Positions 44,317 to 57,264 of a stretch of 64,000 bases of DNA are shown here, one piece after another. The number at the start of each line of letters is the position of its first letter. Positions within the stretch are counted from its first letter, which is position 1. The notes under the pieces are model-generated. The model was not told where the DNA came from. It worked only from the letters and a program-made list of their open reading frames with translations, and did not search any database. This stretch comes from Halomonas halmophila. Lineage in GTDB: Bacteria > Pseudomonadota > Gammaproteobacteria > Pseudomonadales > Halomonadaceae. The stretch is taken from positions 1 through 64,000 of the forward strand of contig NZ_BJOC01000023.1 in assembly GCF_006540005.1 (NCBI RefSeq). Direction: 5' to 3'. Made by a program: the position numbers and the translations under genes.

Positions 44317-44391
44317 CCTTCAATCATAGCGATTCCGCGCCTGGCACACAGGCGCCGGGCGACCCCAACCTCCCGATCCACGAGAGTGTTC

Positions 44392-46266
44392 ATGCTGAAC
44401 TCCTTGCGACTGCGTATTCTCATCGCCGCCCTGACGGTGATCGCCGTGGCGTTGATCATTAACGGCGCGGCCAGTTACTTCACCGTCGAATCCCACAACG
44501 AACGCCAGGTCGACCAGAATCTCCGGGCCGTGGCGCACGGCAATGGTCAGGCCATCGAGGAGTGGGTCGACGCCCGCATCGGCATGCTCGAGGCCCTGGA
44601 TGCCGTGGCGACCAGCGAAAGCCCCATGCCCGCTCTCGAGCAGTTGCTGGTGTCCGGGGGCTTCATGAATACTTATATCGCCGATCCGGCGAATGGTGAC
44701 GTCGTCTTCTCGGCCAGCGAGACCCCGGATGGATACGACCCGCGCGAGCGTCCCTGGTACCGCCAGGCCGTGGAGGCCGAGTCCACCGTGGTCACCGCGC
44801 CCTACGAGGACGCCACCTCCGACAAGCTGGTGGTGACCTTCGCCACCCCCTTCTACCGCGACGGCCAGTTGATCGCCGTGGCCGGCGGCGACGTGGCCAT
44901 CGACGCCATCGTCGATATCGTCGACCAGATCGCCCCCACTCCATCGAGCCTGGCGTTCCTGGCGTCCGACGACGGCACCTTGGTGGCCCATCCCGATCCC
45001 GAGATGAGCCTCGAGCCGGTCGTCGAGCTCTCCCCGGCCCTGACGGCTGCGTCATTGAGTGAACTACCCGAAGTCGAGGCCCCCAGGCACGTCATGCTGG
45101 GCGAGTCGGACAAGCTGCTGCGTGGCCAGCCCATCGACGGTACCGACTGGCAACTGGTGGTGGCGCTGGACGAATTCGAGGCCACTGCCGGCCTGCGAGG
45201 CGTGATGAGCGCTTCCGCGATCACCCTGGTGCTGGTCGCCCTGGGTGCGGCCATCCTGCTGGGTGCCTTGCTGCGTGTCGTCTTCCGTCGCCTGCTGGCG
45301 GTGCGCGATGCCATGGACAACGTGGCCAGCGGCAGCGGCGACTTGACCCGAAGGTTGCCGGCGGACGGCAAGGACGAAGTGGCGCAGATCGCGACAGCCT
45401 TCAACCAGTTCGTGTCGCGCATGGAAGAGGTGATGACCACCATCCGCGACAGCAGCGAATCGGTGCGGGTCGCCGCCACCGAGATCGCCACCGGCGGGCA
45501 GGACCTTTCGCGCCGCACCGAGAACGCTGCCTCCAGCCTGCAGCAGACCTCGGCCTCCATGGAGGAAATCACCAGCACCGTGGAACACACCGCCGAGTCC
45601 TCGCGTCAGGCCAACGGCCTGGCCGAATCCTCCTCCGATGTCGCCCGGCGCGGCGGCGAGGCGGTCGACCAGGTAGTCGAGACCATGCAAGGCATCAGCG
45701 ACTCTTCGCGGCAGATCAGCGAGATCGTCAGCGTGATGGACAGCATTGCCTTCCAGACCAACCTGCTGGCGCTCAACGCTTCGGTGGAGGCGGCCCGCGC
45801 TGGTGAGCAAGGACGCGGCTTCGCGGTGGTAGCCGACGAGGTCCGTCAGCTGGCAAGCCGCAGTGCCGAGGCGGCCAAGCAGATCAAGGGCCTGATCGAT
45901 ACCTCCGTGGAACGCACCGAGGAAGGCGCCAGCCAGGTGCGCCAGGCGGGTGAGACCATGGCCGAGATCGTCGAGAGTGTCACCCGGGTTACCGATGTGC
46001 TGGGCGAGATCACTGCCGCCACTTGTGAGCAAAGTGAGGGCATCAGCCAGGTCAATGTGGCGGTCTCCGAGCTTGACCGCATGACCCAGCAAAACGCCGC
46101 CCTGGTGGAAGAGTCGACCACCGCCGCCGAACAGCTCAAGGATCAGGCCGACCGCCTGTCCGCTGCCGTGGGCGGCTTCACCCTGAGCCAGCGTCGTGCC
46201 GACACGACTTCGGCTCGCACCGAGCCGGCACCTCGGCAGGTCGAGTCAGGCACCGAGTTGGTGTAA
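44392..46266 (+). CDS. Methyl-accepting chemotaxis protein with dCache-type sensor
   Basis: A 624-residue transmembrane chemoreceptor. TM1 is about residues 7-29, followed by a periplasmic dCache-like domain ([24 protein letters not shown]), TM2 about 270-292, HAMP (about 295-345) and a cytoplasmic hairpin with the tip sequence [30 protein letters not shown]. The PWYRQA motif matches dCache domains that bind amino acids or other small ligands, but the ligand cannot be named. No CheR-tethering NWETF-like pentapeptide at the C-terminus. It has its own FliA-type promoter. Confidence 0.94.
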
Positions 46267-46349: not shown

Positions 46350-48983
46350 ATGACAGATGATCTTGCCCTGCTGGAAGCGCAGCAGGATGTCCATGAGCTG
46401 ATTGCCCGTCAGGCGCCGCTGGACAATACGCTGGACGCTATTGCCGGCTGGGCAGGTATCCTGCTGCCCGGCGCCAGCGCCGCCTTCATGCGTTTCGATC
46501 AAGCCCGGTGCACGCTCAGCCTGTTGCCCAGCCAGCGTTTTTCCAAGCGTTACTGCGAACGCCTTCAGCAGGTCGGGATCGGGCCGAATGCGCCCTCCTT
46601 TGGTGCAGCTGGCTACTGGCGTCGGCCAATGGTCACGGTCAACATCGTAAGCGATGCACGTTGGCATGACCTGCGGCGTGATGCGCTGGACGAAGGGTTG
46701 CAGGCTTGCTGGTCCTGCCCGGTACTGAACGCGTCCGGGGAGTTGCTGGGCACCTTCGATGCCTATTTTCGAGAGTCCGCGGCCCCTGCCGAGAGCAACC
46801 TTCAGTGGTTGCGGCAGGGCGCTGCGCTGGTGGCGCTTGCCATCATGCGTGACCAGGAAAGCCGTTCTCACCGGGCATTGGCCGAGTGGTACCGCTCCCT
46901 GTTTGATAACCATCCGGAAGGGGTCTATGAGTTCGACCTGAAAGGCCGTTTCCAGCGTGGTAATACGGCCCTTGAACGGATATCCGGCTATGCAGAAGAA
47001 GCGCTTGTGGGACGGCATTTCAATGATTTCATCGACCCTGAATACCGGGAGCTCACTCAGGATGCCTTCGATGCAGCAAGGTCAGGAGAGACTCGCCATT
47101 ACGAAACGGCCGGCATCCATGCCAATGGCCACGTCTATCATCTGGAAATCACCAATTTTCCGGTGACCATCGATGAAGACGTCGTCGGTGTCTATGGTAT
47201 TTGTCGCGATATCACTCAGCGCAAGCACCAGGAATCCGACCTTCGATTATTGCAGCGAGGAATCGAGGCGAGCCCGGTCGGGGTGATCATGGCCGATGCC
47301 ACACAGGAAGACATGCCGCTGGTCTATGCCAACGGTGCCTTCTGCCGGATAACGGGCCATGAATTCAGCCAGGTCATCGGCAGGAACTGTCGTTTCCTTC
47401 AGGGCAGTGAGACCGCCCCGGCGAGCATAGACACCATCCGTGATGCCTTGCGAAGGTGCTCCGCCGTGGAGGTCACACTGCTCAATTATCGTCAGGATGG
47501 CTCGACATTCTGGAATAATCTGTCGATCAGCCCTGTGGTCGACGAGACGGGTAAGTGCACCCACTTCATCGGGACGCTGGAAGAAATTACCCAACAGCTG
47601 GAACAGGAAGCGCAGCTTGCCTATCAGGCGTCGCATGATGTGCTGACGGGGTTAGCCAACCGTTCCGCCCTGGATGGTCGTCTCGAAAGTGAATTTCGCT
47701 CAAGCCGTGAGCAGCGCCATACGCTGGTTGTGATGTACCTCGACCTTGATGGTTTCAGGGTTATCAATGATGGCCTGGGCCACCATGTGGGCAACCTGCT
47801 ACTGGCCGCCGTCGCCGACCGACTGCGTCTGTTGCTCGGAGCCAGCGATACATTGGCCCGTATCGCCAGCGATGAGTTCGTCATGCTGTTTCCGGGGTTC
47901 GAGAACCGGAACGAAGTGACGGATAAGGCACAGTCAATTCTCGATGCATTTGATATGCCCATCGAGATCGCGGGACGTGAGTTGTACATCAGTACCAGTA
48001 TTGGAGTGGCCTACACCGATGCTGGCACCGTATGTTCCCAGGAGTTGCTGCAAAATGCGGGGTTGGCACTGGAAGAGGCGAAGCGTCAAGGGCGCAACAC
48101 CTGGCAGTGGTACAAGGAAGGTTTCAGACAGCGCATCAATGCCAGATGCCTGTTACGACATGATATGCAGGTGGCGCTGCGTGAGCAGCAGTTCGAGCTC
48201 TATTATCAGCCGATCGTGGAGGCGTTCAGCGGGCGAATTCGCAGTGTCGAGGCCCTGGTCCGCTGGCAGCATCCCGAGCACGGGCTGATCTCTCCAGCGG
48301 AGTTCATTCCCCTGGCTGAACAAACCGGGCAAATCATCACACTGGGACGCTGGGTGCTGAGGCATGCGTGTCAGAGCATGGCAAATCGTCTGGCGCAGGG
48401 TGAGCGAGTCTTCCCGGTCTCGGTCAACATCTCGCCCCTGCAGTTTCGGCGCGATGGTTTCCTGGATGAAGTCACGCGCATTCTGGACGAGACACAACTT
48501 CCGCCTGAACTCCTCGAACTGGAGGTGACCGAAAGCATCCTGATGCGGGGCGCCGAACAGGCCATTGCGCTGATCGGGAAATTGCGCGAGCGGGGCATCA
48601 CGATTGCCATCGACGATTTCGGTACGGGCTTCTCCAGCCTCAGTTACCTCCGCGATTTACCCATTCACAGGGTCAAGCTGGATCGTGCCTTCATCCAGGA
48701 TATTCTGACCTGTTCGGGCAATGCGGCTATCGTACAGGGCATTATCACCATGGCCCATCACATGAATCTGCAGGTCGTCGCGGAAGGCATCGAAACCTTT
48801 GATCAGCAGCGGGATCTTGGCCGTCGCCAGTGTGATCTACTGCAGGGATTTCTGTTCGCGAAGCCAATGCCGCTGGATCGGCTGCAAGCACTACCCGACC
48901 GGTTGCCTGAAGCAACCGGGCAGCCAAATGATCGTGAGTATCGCTCCAGCGTTTACAGTCTCGCGCATTGGCAGGCGATATGA
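46350..48983 (+). CDS. GAF-PAS-LOV-GGDEF-EAL protein, predicted blue-light-controlled c-di-GMP phosphodiesterase
   Basis: An 877-residue soluble sensor-enzyme. Order: GAF-like (about 10-168), PAS (about 180-290), LOV (about 300-415), GGDEF (about 420-590), EAL (about 600-850). The LOV domain keeps the flavin/photoactive motif GRNCRFLQG with the adduct-forming cysteine at C347, plus LLNYRQDGSTFWNN. The conserved glutamine that normally contacts flavin N5 is replaced: FIGVQ-type becomes FIGTL, with L410. GGDEF reads ASDEF (506-510) and lacks an RxxD I-site, so cyclase activity is doubtful. EAL is complete: EAL 634-636, N693, DDFGTG 755-760, K776, EGIET 812-816, QG 832-833. It lies 83 bases after the chemoreceptor and is probably cotranscribed. 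Confidence 0.88.
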   Translation: MTDDLALLEAQQDVHELIARQAPLDNTLDAIAGWAGILLPGASAAFMRFDQARCTLSLLPSQRFSKRYCERLQQVGIGPNAPSFGAAGYWRRPMVTVNIVSDARWHDLRRDALDEGLQACWSCPVLNASGELLGTFDAYFRESAAPAESNLQWLRQGAALVALAIMRDQESRSHRALAEWYRSLFDNHPEGVYEFDLKGRFQRGNTALERISGYAEEALVGRHFNDFIDPEYRELTQDAFDAARSGETRHYETAGIHANGHVYHLEITNFPVTIDEDVVGVYGICRDITQRKHQESDLRLLQRGIEASPVGVIMADATQEDMPLVYANGAFCRITGHEFSQVIGRNCRFLQGSETAPASIDTIRDALRRCSAVEVTLLNYRQDGSTFWNNLSISPVVDETGKCTHFIGTLEEITQQLEQEAQLAYQASHDVLTGLANRSALDGRLESEFRSSREQRHTLVVMYLDLDGFRVINDGLGHHVGNLLLAAVADRLRLLLGASDTLARIASDEFVMLFPGFENRNEVTDKAQSILDAFDMPIEIAGRELYISTSIGVAYTDAGTVCSQELLQNAGLALEEAKRQGRNTWQWYKEGFRQRINARCLLRHDMQVALREQQFELYYQPIVEAFSGRIRSVEALVRWQHPEHGLISPAEFIPLAEQTGQIITLGRWVLRHACQSMANRLAQGERVFPVSVNISPLQFRRDGFLDEVTRILDETQLPPELLELEVTESILMRGAEQAIALIGKLRERGITIAIDDFGTGFSSLSYLRDLPIHRVKLDRAFIQDILTCSGNAAIVQGIITMAHHMNLQVVAEGIETFDQQRDLGRRQCDLLQGFLFAKPMPLDRLQALPDRLPEATGQPNDREYRSSVYSLAHWQAI

Positions 48984-49087: not shown

Positions 49088-49170
49088 ACTTCCACCTCGT
49101 GGCAGATCAGCGAGATTGTCAGCCTGATGCACCGAAGCGCCTTCCAGGCCAACTTGCTGGCAGGCTCGCC
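49088..49170 (+). pseudogene. Decayed fragment of a chemoreceptor signalling tip
   Basis: Bases about 49100-49160 encode WQISEIVSLMHRSAFQANLLA, closely resembling the tip region of the intact chemoreceptor nearby ([20 protein letters not shown]). Similarity stops abruptly on both sides, there is no start, HAMP or second half, and the frame runs into unrelated Arg-rich sequence. It is a remnant, probably from a duplication or recombination next to the toxin-antitoxin pair. The rest of 48984-49273 holds no recognised gene. Confidence 0.6.
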
Positions 49171-49273
49171 TGGCACCGGCACAACGCCGCGTCGAGGAAG
49201 ACGCCGAAGAAGCGTTCGCCTGAGGTGTCGTATCCTTGTCCCGGTGACATGAAATAACACATAGGGACAAAAT

Positions 49274-49726
49274 ATGGCTTATACTTCGGATGTGGATGTT
49301 CAATCCGATACCGGAGAAACGGCCATGATGGCGGCACAGGCACAGCAGCGCCCTGCGACCAATACCCCGGAAGCAGGGCGCGTCGCGCTCAAGTTCTTCT
49401 TCAACATCATGCAGGCCTGGGGGTGCTCTGTTACCCAGCAGCGCACCCTGCTGGGCGGCATCGGCAATACCACCTACCACAAGTATCGAAAGCTGCCCGA
49501 GGTACGCCTGCCTCGCGACACCATGGAGCGGATTTCCTACCTGATGGGCATCCACAAGGCGCTGCGGATCCTGTTCAGCAACAGCCCGGAGAAGGCCTAC
49601 GAATGGGTGCACAAGCCCAATGAGGCGGCGCCCTTCAATGGTCAATCGGCCCTCGCGTACATGCTCCAGGGTCGCGTGGTGGACCTGGCCGATACGCGCC
49701 GGTATCTCGATGCCGTTAGAGGGTGA
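49274..49726 (+). CDS. Xre/MbcA/ParS-type antitoxin (DUF2384)
   Basis: A 150-residue antitoxin for the RES toxin that follows. The N-terminal Xre-like HTH part (ALKFFFNIMQAWGCSVTQQRTLLG) and the C-terminal toxin-binding domain (RISYLMGIHKALRILFS, AYEWVHKPNEAAPFNGQSAL, LDAVRG) match the Xre/MbcA/ParS family. It normally binds the toxin and represses the operon. The start at 49274 is taken; ATG 49325, with a good GGAG, gives a protein 17 residues shorter and is a fair alternative. Three bases separate it from the toxin. Confidence 0.9.
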   Translation: MAYTSDVDVQSDTGETAMMAAQAQQRPATNTPEAGRVALKFFFNIMQAWGCSVTQQRTLLGGIGNTTYHKYRKLPEVRLPRDTMERISYLMGIHKALRILFSNSPEKAYEWVHKPNEAAPFNGQSALAYMLQGRVVDLADTRRYLDAVRG

Positions 49727-49729
49727 CCC

Positions 49730-50410
49730 TTGCGCTTGCCGAGCATCCTGCCCGCCTGGCACAACGCCTATCGCGTCATCAACAGCGCCTTTCCGCCGAT
49801 CGATGTGTTCGAGGACACGCTCGATCCCGAGGACCTGGAACTCGCCTTCGCCATCGAGGGAATGACCAACGACAGGCTGCTCGAGAAGGCCGGCGAACTG
49901 ACCCGCGTGCCTCGTGTCGATCGCGTCTCCGGGCCCGACTCGACGCCTATCATGGCCGCCTTCACTCATATCGGCAGACGGTCACGATTCAGCGACGGCA
50001 CCTTCGGGGTCTACTACTGCGCCAGCCGCCTGGATACGGCCATCGCCGAGACGCGTTTCCATCTGTCCGAGTTTCTGCAGGCCACTCGGGAGGGCACTGT
50101 CGAGATCACCATGCGGACCTATATCAACACCATCACTCGAGAGCTGGAGGATATCCGGCAGGGCCATGACGGGTTGCACGCCCCAGACCCGGCGCGCTAT
50201 GGGGAGGCTCAGGCCTTCGCCACTCGACGACGCGAGGCGGGCGCGTTCGGGTTGCTCTACCAGAGCGTTCGCGACCCTGGTCACGAGTGCGCCGCTATCT
50301 TTCGGCCGCCCGCCCTCAGCATTCCGGACCAGGGCCCGCATCTGCGCTATCTATGGGATGGCAGGCAACAGGCGATCACCCATGTGCTGGAAGTGTCCGA
50401 GCACCGGTGA
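49730..50410 (+). CDS. RES-domain toxin, predicted NAD+-degrading
   Basis: A 226-residue RES-family toxin. Known members break down NAD+ (phosphorylase or glycohydrolase). The residues named by the family are in place: AYRVI near residue 14, GRRSRFSDGTFGVYYCA (82-98), E107 in AIAETRFH and S179 in LYQSVRDPG. Start is TTG with GAGGG upstream, right after the antitoxin stop, so the pair is translationally linked. It is intact, so its antitoxin is presumably functional. Confidence 0.9.
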   Translation: MRLPSILPAWHNAYRVINSAFPPIDVFEDTLDPEDLELAFAIEGMTNDRLLEKAGELTRVPRVDRVSGPDSTPIMAAFTHIGRRSRFSDGTFGVYYCASRLDTAIAETRFHLSEFLQATREGTVEITMRTYINTITRELEDIRQGHDGLHAPDPARYGEAQAFATRRREAGAFGLLYQSVRDPGHECAAIFRPPALSIPDQGPHLRYLWDGRQQAITHVLEVSEHR

Positions 50411-50441
50411 GGGGGCGGATTCGACGGAGAGGCAGGGCGAT

Positions 50442-51036: not shown

Positions 51037-51078
51037 ATTGTCACCGCCTGGAAGGCGCGGTGGTATCCAGTCGGTCAC

Positions 51079-52152
51079 TTAGCCCAGCAGCGACAGGGCG
51101 CTCTGCGGCAGCTGGTTGGCTTGTGCCAGCACGGAGGTGCCTGCCTGCTGCAGGATCTGGTTCTTGGTCATATCTGCCACTTCGGTGGCGTAGTCGGCAT
51201 CCTCGATCCGCGAGCGAGCGGCGGAGAGGTTGGTCTCGTTGGTTTGAAGATTGGTGATGGCAGACTCGAAGCGGTTCTGGATGGCACCTAAATCTGAGCG
51301 CAGGCTATCGACTTCACCGAGAGCTGCATCTAGAGAGGCCAGCGGCCCATCAGTAACCGTGCCAACAGGGCCGCCTGCTTCATCTACAGTGAAGTCTGCT
51401 GTCGGAGCAGTGGGGTCGGTGGCCTCATCAATCGAAACGTTGGAAACGGCAAAGTTATCTGAACCATCGTTGGCAAAATATTTGCCTTCTGCGTCTTGGT
51501 GAAGCGTATAGGTGCCTGAAAGGGTGCCGCCGTCAGCGGCAGTGGCTGTACCGGTAGTCACTGCCACTTCGTTACCGCTACCATCATCACCCGCTGTAGC
51601 TTGTGCTGCAGTTCCCTCGACACCGTTAACATTAAAACCAGTTAAGCCTAGCTCCTCTACATTGGTTGTCTTAAAGTTAATGTCAATGGTTTGACCGTCT
51701 TTAGCACCAACTTGAATCGTCATTGAGTCGGCACCTTCCGCCAACACACTGGTGCCGTTGAAGTCAGTTTCGCGTGAGATGCGATCAATTTCTTCAAGGC
51801 GTTGGCTGATCTCGTCCTGAATCGAGTTTAAGTCCGCCTGTGAGTTAGTGCCATTTTGAGCTTGAACGGTCAGCTCGCGAACGCGCTGGAGGTTGTCGTT
51901 GACCTGGTTGAGGCCACCTTCGGCAGTCTGCGCCGCTGAGATGCCGTCGTTGGCGTTACGCTGTGCCTGGGAAAGGCCGGTGATCTGACTGGACATGCGG
52001 TTGGCGATGGCCTGACCGGCGGCATCGTCCTGGGCGCTGTTGATGCGCAGGCCGGAGCTCAGACGCTCCATTGAGGTAGCCAGGGCATTCTTCGATTCGC
52101 CCAGGTTCTGCTGGGCGATCATCGCGGTGATGTTGGTATTGATCACTGACAT
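51079..52152 (-). CDS. fliC: Flagellin FliC
   Basis: A 357-residue filament subunit, the only flagellin in the window. The conserved D0/D1 ends are standard: MSVINTNITAMIAQQNLGES, MERLSSGLRINSAQDDAAGQAI at the N-terminus, and ESAITNLQTNETNLSAARSRI with ADMTKNQILQQAGTSVLAQA at the C-terminus. The central part (bases about 51280-51880) is visibly lower in GC than the ends, as for an exchangeable antigenic domain. GGAAGG precedes the start. Transcribed from the FliA promoter at 52249-52275. Confidence 0.97.
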   Translation of the reverse strand: MSVINTNITAMIAQQNLGESKNALATSMERLSSGLRINSAQDDAAGQAIANRMSSQITGLSQAQRNANDGISAAQTAEGGLNQVNDNLQRVRELTVQAQNGTNSQADLNSIQDEISQRLEEIDRISRETDFNGTSVLAEGADSMTIQVGAKDGQTIDINFKTTNVEELGLTGFNVNGVEGTAAQATAGDDGSGNEVAVTTGTATAADGGTLSGTYTLHQDAEGKYFANDGSDNFAVSNVSIDEATDPTAPTADFTVDEAGGPVGTVTDGPLASLDAALGEVDSLRSDLGAIQNRFESAITNLQTNETNLSAARSRIEDADYATEVADMTKNQILQQAGTSVLAQANQLPQSALSLLG

Positions 52153-52248
52153 GGTGATTTCCTTCCAAGCTGTTGAGGGCTCCATTGGCGGACCCGTCAC
52201 GCTGGCGCTCCGGGCCTGCCGCAACGGCGCCGTTGGCCGTTACTCCTT

Positions 52249-52275
52249 ATATCGGTGGCCTGGAAGGGACCTTTA
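52249..52275 (-). promoter_or_regulatory. FliA (sigma-28) promoter of fliC
   Basis: On the minus strand TAAA (52275-52272), exactly 15 bases, ACCGATAT (52256-52249), about 97 bases before the fliC ATG. Six of eight -10 positions match. Confidence 0.75.
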
Positions 52276-52419
52276 GGGTGTGAAGTGAAAAATTTTGCTC
52301 TCGGCCCCGAGGCGAACACCAAGCCAAGTCACCTGGGATGCGGTGGGCCAGGAGAGCGGTGATAGACTCGGATCCCTCGCTCTTTACTCCTTACCCTTTA
52401 CTTCTTGCTTCTGAACCCC

Positions 52420-52680: not shown

Positions 52681-55398
52681 TTATCGGGATGTCATGGCCT
52701 CGCCCCAGCTTGCCACGAAGTCGGCGGGGGGCAACGGGCGCCCAAAGTAGTAACCCTGGGCCTGGTCGCAGCCCAGCCGGGCCAGTTCGCTGGCCTGTTT
52801 CGGCGTTTCCACCCCTTCGGCGATGGTCTGCATGCCCAGGCTGCGCGCCATGGCGATGATGGTTTCCACGATGGCGCGGTCGTGGGGGCCGTCGAGCATC
52901 TCGCGTACGAAGGAGAGATCGATCTTGAGGGTATCGGCGGCGAAGCGACGCAGGTAGGCCAGCGAGGAATAGCCGGTGCCGAAGTCGTCGATCGAGAGGG
53001 TGTAGCCGGCCTGGCGCAGGGCTTGGGTGATGGCGATGGCCTGTTCGGGGTCCCGCATGACGTCGCTTTCCGTCAGTTCCAGGTCGAGGGACGAGGTCGG
53101 CGTGTGGCGGGTCAGTTCGGCGATACGCCGGGCCAGGTCGGGGTCGGTGAATTGCTGGGCCGAGACGTTGACCGACAGCCGGCCCGGCAGGGGATGGCCG
53201 TTGCATCGCCAGGTGGCCAGTTGGCGAGCGGCCTTTTCGAGCACCCATTCGCCCAGTGGACGAATCAGCCCGCGCTCCTCGGCCAGCGGGATGAATTCCC
53301 CGGGGCTGACCCAGCCCCAGTCCTCGTCGTACCAGCGGCATAGCGCCTCGGCCCCCACCAGCTCGCCGCTGGCGAGATCGAACTTCGGCTGATAGTACAG
53401 CTCGAGCTTGCCTTCACCGAGGGCGAGGTGGAGTCGCTCGGTCATCCGTTGGTGGCGCTGCAGGGCCAGGGTCATCGAGGGGTCGAAGGGGCAGGTGCCG
53501 TCGGCCTGGTGCTTGGCGTGGTAGAGGGCGATGCTGGCGAACTTGAACAGCTCTTCGGGTGTGACGGCATCCCGCGGATACTGGGCGGTACCGATGCTGA
53601 CCGAGAGCGTGAAACGGTGGTGGTCGAGGGTGAGGGGGCGGCCCACGGCCTGGCGCATGCGCTCGAGGCATTGTGCCAGCTCCGGCGCCGAGGCTCTGGG
53701 CACCAGCAGGGCGAACTCGTCGCCGGAGAGGCGGGCCAGGCGCTCGTGCGGCGCCAGGGCGGATCGCAGCCGCCCGCCGAGGGTCGCGAGCAGCCGGTCG
53801 CCGACCTGATGGCCGAGGGTGTCGTTGATTTCCTTGAACCGGCGGATGTCGATCAGCAGCAGTGCCAGCGGGGTCTGGTCACGCTCGGCGGCCTGTCGCT
53901 GATGGCTCAGGTCTTCCATGAAGCGAATGCGGTTGGGTAGGCCGGTGGTGCCGTCGGTATAGGCCAGCTGGTGCATGCGTCGGTGGTCGTTGCGGCGTTC
54001 CAGCTCGGCGGCGGCGCCGTTGGAGAGAATGCGCAGCACCGAGGTGGCGAAGGCGTCGGCCTCCAGCGGCTGGCGATACAGCACCATGATGAAGCCGATG
54101 GGCTCGCCTCGGGTGTTGTCCAGCCGGCGGCCGATCCAGGCACAGGTGTCCGCCGGGAAGCCGGGTAGGCCGGAAGGGCCTTCGTGCTGGATCATGATCT
54201 CCTGTTCGTGGAGCAGCGTCGCGCAGGGCGTCCCGGCCAGGGGCAGGCGGCAGGGTGCCAGGCTGAGGCCATCGGAGAGGGCGCTGATCAGGCTGACGAC
54301 GGTCTCGTCGGGAAGGGGCGTGACACTGGCGTCTGCCCTGGAGGCGGGCTCCAGCAGGGCGACGAAGCCGGCGTCGGCCTCGAGAGTGCGGGTCAGGGTG
54401 CTTACCAGTTGATGGAAGTAGTCGTCGCCGACTCGGCTGGTGACGGTGGAGGCGATCTGCATCACCGCCTCCTGCACGCGCTGGGCCTCGTGCTGCTCGG
54501 TGATGTCGGTGATGAAGCCTTCCAGGCAGTCGACCTGGCCGTTGGCGTCGAACACCGCCTGGCCCTGTTCCCACATCCAGCGAAGGCCGCTGTTGGCGGT
54601 CCGCAGGCGGTAGACGACCTGGAACGGCTCTCGCCGGGCGATGGCCTGCTGCACGGCGTCGTCGGCGTACTGGCGGTCGTCCGGGTGAATGAGCTCGAGG
54701 TAGCTGATCCGCCGGTTATGGGTAAGATCCTCGGGGGAGTAGCCGGTCAGGTCGGTGGCCCCCTGACTGACCAGCAGCATGGTCCAGTCCGTGTCGTTGA
54801 GGCAGCGGTAGGCCATGCCCGGTAGATGATTGAGCAGGGTGTTCAGCCGGCGCTCGCTCTCGCGGGCATGGCGCTCGCTTGCCTGCAGAGCGCACTCGGC
54901 ATCTCGTCGGCCCAGTTCGGCACCAGCCTGGGTCGCGGCGATGCGCAGCAGCTCGTACTCCTGGTCGCTGGGCGCCATGGGGCGGTTGGCGAGGACGGCC
55001 AGCAGCCCCAGTTGGGCGCCGTCTGTCGTGAACAACGGCAGTCCCAGATAACTCTCGGCCTCGAGCTCCCGCAGCATGCGGTCATGGGGGAAACGGGACT
55101 GCACATTGCCGGGGTACAGGCACATTTCGTGGCTGGCCACCGTCTCGCAAGGCGTGCCGGCCAAGGCATATTGCACGTTTGCCAGATGTTGCCCCCGGGA
55201 CCAGATGGCCAGGGTCTGGGCCTTGTCGTCCCGCACTCGAGCGATCAGGACATGGTCGGCCGAGAGAAGCTGGGCCAGCCGCTCCACCAGTGTGTAGAAA
55301 AAGTCGTCGGAACCGCTGTGACCAAGCCCTTCGGCGAGTCGCCGGAAGGCCTCCTCGGCAGTGATCCGAGCAGGCATGGGTACACTCTCCCAGGTCAT
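52681..55398 (-). CDS. GAF-PAS-GAF-GGDEF-EAL c-di-GMP turnover protein
   Basis: A 905-residue soluble sensor enzyme. Order: GAF (about 25-165), PAS (about 185-300), a second GAF (about 305-465), GGDEF (about 475-640), EAL (about 655-890). Both GAF domains carry LAGTPC (79-84 and 387-392), suggesting internal duplication. GGDEF reads SGDEF (558-562), an allowed variant, with no RxxD I-site. EAL looks active: EAL 684-686, DDFGTG 804-809, LKID 824-827, EGVET 861-865, QG 881-882. It may make and/or degrade c-di-GMP. ATG 55398 has GGAG nine bases upstream; ATG 55377 is an alternative. It diverges from the PilZ-HD-GYP gene. Confidence 0.88.
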   Translation of the reverse strand: MTWESVPMPARITAEEAFRRLAEGLGHSGSDDFFYTLVERLAQLLSADHVLIARVRDDKAQTLAIWSRGQHLANVQYALAGTPCETVASHEMCLYPGNVQSRFPHDRMLRELEAESYLGLPLFTTDGAQLGLLAVLANRPMAPSDQEYELLRIAATQAGAELGRRDAECALQASERHARESERRLNTLLNHLPGMAYRCLNDTDWTMLLVSQGATDLTGYSPEDLTHNRRISYLELIHPDDRQYADDAVQQAIARREPFQVVYRLRTANSGLRWMWEQGQAVFDANGQVDCLEGFITDITEQHEAQRVQEAVMQIASTVTSRVGDDYFHQLVSTLTRTLEADAGFVALLEPASRADASVTPLPDETVVSLISALSDGLSLAPCRLPLAGTPCATLLHEQEIMIQHEGPSGLPGFPADTCAWIGRRLDNTRGEPIGFIMVLYRQPLEADAFATSVLRILSNGAAAELERRNDHRRMHQLAYTDGTTGLPNRIRFMEDLSHQRQAAERDQTPLALLLIDIRRFKEINDTLGHQVGDRLLATLGGRLRSALAPHERLARLSGDEFALLVPRASAPELAQCLERMRQAVGRPLTLDHHRFTLSVSIGTAQYPRDAVTPEELFKFASIALYHAKHQADGTCPFDPSMTLALQRHQRMTERLHLALGEGKLELYYQPKFDLASGELVGAEALCRWYDEDWGWVSPGEFIPLAEERGLIRPLGEWVLEKAARQLATWRCNGHPLPGRLSVNVSAQQFTDPDLARRIAELTRHTPTSSLDLELTESDVMRDPEQAIAITQALRQAGYTLSIDDFGTGYSSLAYLRRFAADTLKIDLSFVREMLDGPHDRAIVETIIAMARSLGMQTIAEGVETPKQASELARLGCDQAQGYYFGRPLPPADFVASWGEAMTSR

Positions 55399-55534: not shown

Positions 55535-55578
55535 ATTCAGCATCGTTCCACTGATAGCGAAAGGTGAGAGGCACAGGG

Positions 55579-57264
55579 ATGGTGGAGGACGGCTACGATC
55601 GGGTGGAAAGTCCCATGGAGGTCGAGGCATTGCTCGAGGCGCTGATGGCGCCGGGCGGCGCCTCGCTGCAAGTGGAGGACGCGGGCGGGGAGCCGCTACC
55701 GGTACTGGTGAAGGATCATCGGCCCGGTGAGGAGTTGCAGCTGGATATCAGCGCCATTCGCGAGATAGCGGGGACGCTGCAGCGCGGTCAGCCATTCCGT
55801 CTTTTGGGGCGCAGTCATGGAAAGTTGGTGCGGACCTCGACACTGACCATGCAGTCTTGCCAGGACGACGAGGGACGCCTGGTCTGTCGCAGTGACTATC
55901 CGCGCAGTCTTGAAGTCCTGCAGCGTCGTGAGACGTTTCGTGCCCAGTTGCGACTCGGCATGGAAGTTGGTGCGATACTGCGGAATACCGAAGCTGGCGG
56001 TCGCTCGATTCAGGGGGATCTCAAGGATCTGTCCCTGGAGGGGTGCCGGCTGGAATTGCCGTTATCAGCCAGTGGCTTGCTGGGAGAGGGAGCGGTGCCG
56101 CAGGAAGTCGAGCTCTGCTTCCCCGATGGTACACGCTACGTCATTAGTCGGGCGTCGTTGCGACACCGAAACGCGGATATGGTGCGTCGCGTAGTTCAGG
56201 CGGGCTTCAGGTTCGAGCAGGCAGGTGCTGAGCAGGAGCGCAAACTGTGGTATTTCGTGCGCGCTATCGAGCAGGAGGCGGCACGCCATGTCGAGGGCGC
56301 AGATGCCTCCAGGCAGCCATCACCCTTGTTCCTGGCATCGGTGACTGCTTCCCCCACGATAGGGCGTCGCAACATGTGCCGTTATGCCACGCCCATGGCA
56401 AAGCGACTGTCGCGTGTCGCCGACTACCTGGATGCCCAGATTCTCGAACTGCATCAAGGCGGCGAGGTTTCCTCGGTCCAGTTATCGCGGCACGCTGACC
56501 TGCTGCTGTTGCTGCATGAAGAGGATCGCGAGGCGTTGCTGTTCGCTACGCACTGTCTGCACGAGGAGACCCGGTTGGTTCGCCACTGCGTGAGCGTCGC
56601 AGTACATCTGCTCGATTTGCTGCAGGAGGTTTCACCGCCGCATGAGTTGTGCAAGGCGGTTGTGGCTTCGGCCATGCTGCACGATCTGGGCAAGGCGTTG
56701 TTGCCGGCCGATCTCTGGGAGCTGGCCGCGCCGAGTACTGATGATAAACAACGGATGCGCGAGCATGTCGACATTCTCCAGCCGCGCATGCGTCATTGTC
56801 ATTGGCTGGCCAGCGCGGTGCATACTTCGGTGGTGCAGCGCATCAATGAGCGCTTGGATGGCAATGGGTACCCACAGGGCCTGGGTGGCGAGACGCTGGG
56901 AGAACTTGAACGTGCTGCCGCCGTGGTCGATGTCGTGGACGCTATGCGACGCGACCGGGCTGATCGTCCCGCCTGGCGTCTTCAGGAGGTGATAAGCCAC
57001 CTGCTGACGCATCCCGACGCCTTCGATGCGCGCTGGGTGCGGCGCTATTTTCAGCGTTTCGGTCGCTACCCGATCGGCTCGCTGGTCCGCTTTTCGAGTG
57101 ACACTCTGGGTTGGGTCCAGGGGCTGGACGACAGCGGTGCTGTTGCTCGGGTGCAACTCACCGATACGATCGGACCGCCCACGGAAGAAATGGGTAAGGT
57201 CATTCAGGGCGACGTGAGCCAGCGCCTGGGAGAGGTGGTCGAGGAAGTCGTGGTAAACGGCTGA
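55579..57264 (+). CDS. PilZ-HD-GYP fusion protein, flagellar-brake-like N-terminus
   Basis: A 561-residue protein joining a YcgR-like N-terminal region (about 15-110), a PilZ domain (about 112-235) and an HD-GYP-like domain (about 325-470). PilZ has both c-di-GMP contacts: RETFR (117-121) and DLSLEG (150-155). In the HD-GYP part H336, H368-D369 (HDLGK), H396 and DGNGYP (427-432) are kept, but the usual HH of the HHExxDGxGYP motif reads I422-N423, so metal binding and hydrolysis are doubtful. It probably reads c-di-GMP and acts on the motor or a partner. It is transcribed toward fliD from a FliA-type promoter. Confidence 0.84.
   Translation: MVEDGYDRVESPMEVEALLEALMAPGGASLQVEDAGGEPLPVLVKDHRPGEELQLDISAIREIAGTLQRGQPFRLLGRSHGKLVRTSTLTMQSCQDDEGRLVCRSDYPRSLEVLQRRETFRAQLRLGMEVGAILRNTEAGGRSIQGDLKDLSLEGCRLELPLSASGLLGEGAVPQEVELCFPDGTRYVISRASLRHRNADMVRRVVQAGFRFEQAGAEQERKLWYFVRAIEQEAARHVEGADASRQPSPLFLASVTASPTIGRRNMCRYATPMAKRLSRVADYLDAQILELHQGGEVSSVQLSRHADLLLLLHEEDREALLFATHCLHEETRLVRHCVSVAVHLLDLLQEVSPPHELCKAVVASAMLHDLGKALLPADLWELAAPSTDDKQRMREHVDILQPRMRHCHWLASAVHTSVVQRINERLDGNGYPQGLGGETLGELERAAAVVDVVDAMRRDRADRPAWRLQEVISHLLTHPDAFDARWVRRYFQRFGRYPIGSLVRFSSDTLGWVQGLDDSGAVARVQLTDTIGPPTEEMGKVIQGDVSQRLGEVVEEVVVNG

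What the first reader, a model, noticed from the sequence alone, without database searches (positions are those of the whole stretch)
46350..48983. LOV-GGDEF-EAL photoreceptor in a flagellar locus, with a natural Gln-to-Leu change at the flavin signalling position
The second sensor domain has the full LOV motif GRNCRFLQG with C347, so flavin binding and cysteinyl-adduct photochemistry are expected. Classical LOV domains follow FIG with V/I-Q; here FIG is followed by T-L (L410). In studied LOV proteins replacing this glutamine by leucine weakens or alters signal relay and slows recovery. The GGDEF is ASDEF (likely inactive) while EAL keeps all catalytic residues. The simplest reading is a blue-light-modulated phosphodiesterase tuned by the glutamine loss and placed beside a chemoreceptor, so light may set swimming by lowering c-di-GMP.
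Basis: partly seen in the sequence, partly recalled or inferred. Interest (0 to 1): 0.8.

Follow-up and report, generated by a model that had tools for sequence, protein, structure and literature searches.

The report
Glutamine-less LOV light-receptor phosphodiesterase
A Halomonas-type bacterium carries a probable blue-light receptor that breaks down a signalling molecule; it lacks a residue long thought essential for passing on the light signal, relatives lost that residue several times over, and the gene looks like a late arrival beside a chemoreceptor gene.

Summary
Window 46350-48983 (+) encodes an 877-residue GAF-PAS-LOV-GGDEF-EAL protein with C347 in GRNCRFLQG, L410 exactly where YtvA and AsLOV2 have the signalling glutamine, ASDEF for GGDEF, and all EAL catalytic residues. 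The kind is known: about 350 natural glutamine-less LOV proteins are published, and a fragment of one (M. loti LOV-GGDEF-EAL, Met) responds to blue light.

Added here: (1) On a tree of 104 Halomonadaceae homologues the glutamine site changes 9 times, 7 of them among cysteine-keeping rows (to Leu, Met or Ile), whereas N482, N492 and Q454 change 0-1 times there. (2) The chemoreceptor pairing looks recent: the two nearest relatives held lack the gene; in the nearest the chemoreceptor gene is continuous, and its last 12 codons now lie downstream of the LOV gene. None of 59 other homologue loci has a chemoreceptor within 400 bp. (3) This copy alone (1 of 104) also has Glu for the DIT-motif Asp beside L410.

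Best reading: an acquired, still photoactive, probably slow-recovering blue-light-controlled c-di-GMP phosphodiesterase. Flavin binding, light response, its sign and any effect on swimming are inferred, not shown.

The parts
46350..48983 (+). GAF-PAS-LOV-GGDEF-EAL gene, 877 aa
46413..46844 (+). GAF_2 domain (aa 22-165)
   Evidence: E 3.9e-10
46902..47225 (+). PAS_4 domain (aa 185-292)
47277..47594 (+). LOV (PAS_9) domain (aa 310-415)
47388..47390 (+). adduct cysteine C347 (TGT)
47577..47579 (+). L410 (CTG) at the LOV glutamine position; 87 of 104 homologue rows have Gln
47583..47585 (+). E412 (GAA) where 103 of 104 rows have the DIT-motif Asp
47628..48098 (+). degenerate GGDEF domain (aa 427-583; ASDEF at 506-510)
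48162..48866 (+). EAL phosphodiesterase domain (aa 605-839), catalytic residues intact
44386..46266 (+). dCache-HAMP chemoreceptor whose last stretch (from about 46166) differs from the nearest relative's
49097..49161 (+). 65-bp chemoreceptor scrap, 85% like window 45706-45770
49185..49223 (+). displaced end of the chemoreceptor gene (RRVEEDAEEAFA and stop), identical to the end of the chemoreceptor gene in the nearest relative L150

Best explanation
The gene encodes a soluble blue-light-controlled c-di-GMP phosphodiesterase. Shown by sequence: complete LOV motif with cysteine and polar flavin contacts, Leu in place of the signalling glutamine, degenerate GGDEF, intact EAL, fixed LOV-to-GGDEF linker length. 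Inferred: FMN binds, blue light makes the C347 adduct, N5 protonation is relayed without the glutamine (water or backbone, as proposed for published Leu variants) into the Ibeta strand and the helix leading to GGDEF-EAL, and EAL activity changes. The Leu should slow dark recovery, shift absorption to the blue and lower amplitude, making the protein a slow light integrator rather than a fast switch. The gene was probably acquired: it sits as an insert in the 3' end of a resident chemoreceptor gene. I expect light to raise phosphodiesterase activity (as in SL2), but the sign is a guess.
For: Domains and residues. Linker from FIG to DxLT is 23 residues in 61 of 61 rows. All six polar contacts checked (N449, R451, Q454, R467, N482, N492) are present here and in 7 of 9 Gln-less Cys-keeping rows, against 63 of 79 rows with both Cys and Gln and 0 of 8 rows lacking both. 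Only 7 of 119 LOV positions carry a residue seen in 3 or fewer of 104 rows. On its end branch the LOV domain has not run faster than the other domains (ratio 0.98). Gln-less Leu variants of YF1 and AsLOV2 and the natural Met protein of M. loti respond to light (PMC9098866, passages); YtvA, parent of YF1, has the same Gly as this protein where AsLOV2 has N414 (G311 in 103 of 104 rows). SL2, a LOV-GGDEF-EAL, is a blue-light-stimulated phosphodiesterase (PMC8846402, passages). Insertion; gene GC 58.0 against 64.9 in the flanks, more extreme than any of 55 homologue loci; relatives sit on plasmids.
Against: Nothing here shows flavin, photochemistry or catalysis. Other Gln-less rows do show a faster LOV domain on their end branches (L073 2.59, L070 2.41, L072 2.20; L046 0.67), and two of the nine Gln-less Cys-keeping rows have lost further contacts (L126, L130), so relaxed constraint is possible in some lineages. 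The Asp-to-Glu change at E412 could uncouple the sensor. Acquisition could in principle be loss in both relatives. Nearness of relatives rests on one marker (FliI).
Confidence: 0.66

Rival explanations
1. The LOV domain still binds flavin and may form the adduct, but with Leu410 and Glu412 the signal no longer reaches the EAL; GAF or PAS ligands, or GTP on the degenerate GGDEF, control the enzyme.
For: Double change in the relay strand; two other sensor domains present; in RmcA and PA0861-type GGDEF-EAL proteins solved with GTP (titles) a non-cyclase GGDEF can be regulatory (recalled).
Against: Pocket kept; published Leu variants keep signalling in several LOV proteins; LOV not faster on this branch.
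Confidence: 0.18
2. The LOV domain now works as a redox or flavin-state sensor rather than a light sensor.
For: Homologues here lacking the cysteine exist in several lineages, and Cys-less LOV proteins can signal by photoreduction to the semiquinone (PMC4682037, passages).
Against: This copy keeps the cysteine and pocket; in 88 Cys-keeping rows the cysteine is by definition fixed, so this set cannot test it further.
Confidence: 0.08
3. The protein makes c-di-GMP in response to light (active cyclase).
For: The Asp, Glu and Phe of the motif remain, and some GGDEF variants are active (recalled); the M. loti protein was tested as a cyclase fragment.
Against: Both glycines are replaced (ASDEF), and the usual GD after the IND motif reads GN; EAL is fully conserved.
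Confidence: 0.05
4. L410 or the insertion is a sequencing or assembly artefact.
For: L410 is one base from Gln (CTG against CAG); draft genome in 90 contigs; chemoreceptor genes are repeated.
Against: Leu at the same site in unrelated genomes; neither junction has a second full copy in the genome, only a 65-bp 85% match; open frame throughout.
Confidence: 0.03

Closest known systems
Natural glutamine-less LOV receptors; M. loti LOV-GGDEF-EAL (WP_140774521.1), PMC9098866
   Same: LOV with cysteine kept, signalling Gln replaced, followed by GGDEF-EAL; hydrophobic replacements (Leu, Ile) are the commonest in the published set
   Different: M. loti has Met and was tested as a cyclase fragment repressed by light; here Leu, degenerate GGDEF, intact EAL, extra GAF and PAS, and Glu for the DIT Asp
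SL2 of Synechococcus elongatus (LOV-GGDEF-EAL; PMC8846402, passages)
   Same: Domain order LOV-GGDEF-EAL, phosphodiesterase output
   Different: SL2 is described there as canonical LOV; this protein lacks the Gln and has GAF-PAS in front
YtvA / YF1 Q123L (PMC9098866, passages)
   Same: Same residue at the Gln site in an engineered LOV that still signals, with Gly where AsLOV2 has N414
   Different: Histidine kinase or STAS output; engineered change
DosP, PA0861, PaMorA, RmcA (PA0575) GGDEF-EAL structures
   Same: Best structural matches for the PAS-GGDEF-EAL part
   Different: Haem or other sensors, no photoactive LOV cysteine (recalled)

Membership tests
LOV photoreceptor domain | PAS fold with NCRFLQ motif and adduct cysteine | tested here: met
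LOV photoreceptor domain | signalling glutamine in strand Ibeta | tested here: not met
   L410. Published work shows this feature is dispensable
LOV photoreceptor domain | flavin binding and reversible adduct | not testable with these tools
   contacts present but no spectroscopy
Glutamine-less LOV receptors (LOV-deltaQ) | other conserved LOV residues kept, Gln replaced by a non-aromatic residue | tested here: met
Glutamine-less LOV receptors (LOV-deltaQ) | light response retained | not testable with these tools
EAL c-di-GMP phosphodiesterase | catalytic metal and substrate residues | tested here: met
EAL c-di-GMP phosphodiesterase | c-di-GMP hydrolysis | not testable with these tools
Active GGDEF diguanylate cyclase | GG(D/E)EF motif | tested here: not met
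   ASDEF
Conserved chemoreceptor-photoreceptor pair | same neighbour in homologues | tested here: not met
   0 of 59 other loci within 400 bp; gene absent in two nearest relatives

The most novel reading that the evidence does not exclude
Replacing the LOV glutamine by Leu, Met or Ile is a recurrent evolutionary tuning switch: mobile c-di-GMP phosphodiesterases in Halomonadaceae repeatedly trade fast, strong signalling for long-lived, sensitive light integration while keeping the photochemistry, with the Asp-to-Glu change here as a second adjustment of the relay.
Probability: 0.3. Interest if true: 0.68.

Novelty: new member of a known kind. Interest (0 to 1): 0.48.

Why it matters
The glutamine was long thought essential for LOV signalling; mutants showed it is not. 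A set of closely related natural proteins in which it was replaced several times beside sisters that keep it is a ready-made comparison: the same output and linker, with Gln or Leu, Met, Ile. It lets one ask whether nature uses this site to set recovery time, and it offers slow LOV phosphodiesterases as optogenetic tools.

Tried and rejected
Considered and set aside: (1) a conserved chemoreceptor-LOV operon: not found in other loci, and the site looks like an insertion. (2) One shared origin of the Gln loss: on the non-LOV tree the AU test rejects one clade of the five Gln-less Cys-keeping rows of the close set (p 2.6e-5) and WIN with L073 (p 9e-4); a third test did not finish, and the groups were named after seeing the tree, which the test does not allow for. 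(3) A LOV domain swapped in from another Gln-less protein: the LOV nearest to WIN is L086 (68%), which keeps Gln. (4) Residues that go with Gln loss: none besides the site itself reached 3 of 7 lineages while rare in Gln-keeping rows. (5) A terminator or promoter between the chemoreceptor and the LOV gene: no site in the gap beyond chance, RNA fold no better than shuffles, so co-transcription is open. (6) A close-relative scan of named genomes gave two Halomonadaceae loci and one remote hit.

Left out of counts: one search gave 61 places at E 1e-255 or better; 59 of the 60 other than the window were fetched as L046-L105 together with one place (G016), and the remaining one (G001) was read from L027. 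Of 43 second-family places that I counted, 39 went into the 104-row set and 4 were not fetched. L057 had no anchor in the neighbour count. L111 and L139 were misread (wrong frame) and corrected. One search, meant to look for cysteines in the other PAS matches of the genome, resolved only one of three.

Full report
What is there. The ORF at 46350-48983 (+) gives 877 residues. Pfam finds GAF_2 (22-165), PAS_4 (185-292), PAS_9, the family that holds LOV (310-415), GGDEF (427-583) and EAL (605-839). C347 lies in GRNCRFLQG, L410 in THFIGTLEEIT, ASDEF at 506-510. Against solved structures the LOV stretch matches LOV photoreceptors at E about 1e-30, and the alignment sets L410 on the Gln of YtvA. The AlphaFold2 model (47 sequences, mean pLDDT 85.6, pTM 0.41, so domain placement is unsure) has L410 in strand 403-412. 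Foldseek's best matches are DosP, PA0861, PaMorA and RmcA GGDEF-EAL structures; a LOV-activated diguanylate cyclase (8c05) is among them.

Surroundings. The window contains FliF, FliG, FliI, flagellin, FliD, FliK-like and MotA-type genes; an Xre-RES pair at 49274-50410; a second GAF-PAS-GGDEF-EAL protein at 52681-55398; and a PilZ-HD protein at 55564-57264. A dCache chemoreceptor ends 83 bp upstream of the gene.

Homologues. Searches of 90 genomes of the genus and 275 of the family gave 60 close homologues that I read as L046-L105, plus L027 and a second family of GAF-PAS-LOV-GGDEF-EAL proteins with long N-terminal extensions; 104 rows in all with the window. Classes at the Cys and Gln sites: Cys+Gln 79; Cys kept, Gln lost 9 (Leu 5, Met 3, Ile 1); Cys lost, Gln kept 8 (Ala 3, Gly 3, Leu 1, Pro 1); both lost 8 (Ser+His 7, Trp+Leu 1).

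How often. On a FastTree tree built without the LOV columns the Gln site changes 9 times and the Cys site 7 times. Among the 88 Cys-keeping rows the Gln site changes 7 times; N482 changes 0, N492 1, Q454 1 and L453 1, but N449 5, R451 4, R467 10 and F509 10, with a median of 10 over positions 300-418. So the Gln is freer than the tightest flavin contacts, not freer than all of them. L126 and L130 are neighbours, with three Gln-keeping rows next to L126, so one loss and one regain would explain them as well as two losses. For the close set an IQ-TREE quick tree gives 5 changes at the Gln site and rejects a single clade of the five Cys-keeping Gln-less rows.

Is it decaying? In the window copy all six polar contacts checked are present; the same holds for 7 of 9 Gln-less Cys-keeping rows and 63 of 79 Cys+Gln rows (Fisher p 1.0), and for 0 of 8 rows lacking both (7 of these are one clade, so the p of 0.002 overstates it). 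On the window's end branch the LOV domain has run at the pace of the others (0.98), but other Gln-less rows differ: L073 2.59, L070 2.41, L072 2.20, L046 0.67. The window copy has a further change nobody else has: Glu412 for the DIT-motif Asp (1 of 104), and His337 (2 of 104).

Output. EAL catalytic residues are invariant apart from one row with an odd C-terminal end. The GGDEF motif is degenerate across the close set: TGDEF 34, VGDEF 10, GGDEF 3, GSDEF 3 and others, of 61. The LOV-to-GGDEF spacing is 23 residues in 61 of 61. I therefore take the protein for a phosphodiesterase with a non-cyclase GGDEF.

How it came here. By FliI the nearest relatives held are G023 (100%) and G022 (94%); neither has a match to the protein at 1e-150. 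In G023 the chemoreceptor (window 44366-46256, 92.7%) runs straight into the Xre-RES pair (window 49175-50417, 97.3%). Its chemoreceptor ends in RRVEEDAEEAFA, that of G022 in a like end; the window's ends in [10 protein letters not shown], while the 39 bases for RRVEEDAEEAFA and stop stand at 49185-49223, downstream of the LOV gene, after a 65-bp chemoreceptor scrap. Identity of the chemoreceptor to G023 is 88-99% per 100 bp and falls to 63% in the last slice. The gene is poorer in G+C than its flanks by 6.9 points, beyond any of 55 homologue loci (-6.1 to +7.3, median -0.4). I read this as an insertion by recombination in chemoreceptor sequence; loss in both relatives is not strictly excluded. 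Homologues at 60.7% identity lie in one identical 9.3-kb block on two plasmids of Halomonas sp. THAF12, with two diguanylate cyclases and a recombinase; others at about 41% lie on Acinetobacter plasmids. The genus is mobile-gene country for this family, but the donor here is unknown.

What is conserved beside it elsewhere. Within the fetched flanks 20 of 60 homologue loci have the PilZ-HD gene, 16 of 60 a membrane PAS-GGDEF gene, 32 of 60 either; flagellin is near in 5 of 59. The common thread is c-di-GMP genes, not chemoreceptors. In the window the PilZ-HD gene lies 6.6 kb downstream.

How it probably works. Blue light, adduct at C347, N5 protonation, relay without Gln, change in the strand and helix to GGDEF-EAL, change in hydrolysis. 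Published Leu variants recover about 10-fold (YF1, by the paper's comparison) to 22-fold (AsLOV2) more slowly, absorb further to the blue, and AsLOV2 Q513L shows half the CD amplitude; His at the site abolishes canonical photochemistry (PMC9098866, passages). AsLOV2 uses N414 in the relay; this family has Gly there (103 of 104), as YtvA does, so YF1 Q123L is the better guide. None of this was measured on the present protein.

Known or new. About 350 natural glutamine-less LOV proteins are in print, mostly Leu or Ile, and an M. loti LOV-GGDEF fragment with Met is blue-light repressed (PMC9098866, passages). Its supplement could not be opened, so I cannot say whether Halomonas sequences are listed; its main text does not name the genus. 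Searches for LOV, GGDEF, EAL and Halomonas together found one paper that holds the words, and Halomonas with blue light and photoreceptor two unrelated ones by their titles. I found no report of repeated loss in one family or of the insertion, within these searches.

Noticed in passing
L059, L060, L061, L063, L064, L065, L066 (one other genus, g23): A clade of 7 homologues has Ser for the adduct Cys and His for the signalling Gln together, with EAL intact; His at this site abolished canonical photochemistry in published LOV proteins, so the domain may sense something else.
   Followed up: partly
L081; L119, L121, L129, L132, L134, L141, L142: Homologues with the adduct Cys replaced (Leu, Ala, Gly, Pro) but the Gln kept.
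   Followed up: partly
window 49274-50410: Xre-RES toxin-antitoxin-like pair; present at the same place in G023 (97%), no match in the fetched region of G022.
   Followed up: partly
window 55564-57264: PilZ domain fused to an HD_5 domain; below all NCBIfam cut-offs; its homologue is the commonest neighbour of the LOV gene elsewhere (20 of 60 loci).
   Followed up: partly
window 52681-55398: Second GAF-PAS-GGDEF-EAL protein beside flagellin.
   Followed up: no
window 51078-52296 against L150, L152: Flagellin region is far more diverged (about 80-84% and 73-75%) than its surroundings in the two nearest relatives, and G022 shows two flagellin matches.
   Followed up: no
L156, L157: A 9300-base block with a LOV-GGDEF-EAL gene, two diguanylate cyclases and a recombinase is identical on two plasmids of one Halomonas strain.
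   Followed up: partly
L158: Acinetobacter soli plasmid homologue has Tyr for the adduct Cys (NYNFLQG) with Gln kept, between insertion sequences.
   Followed up: no
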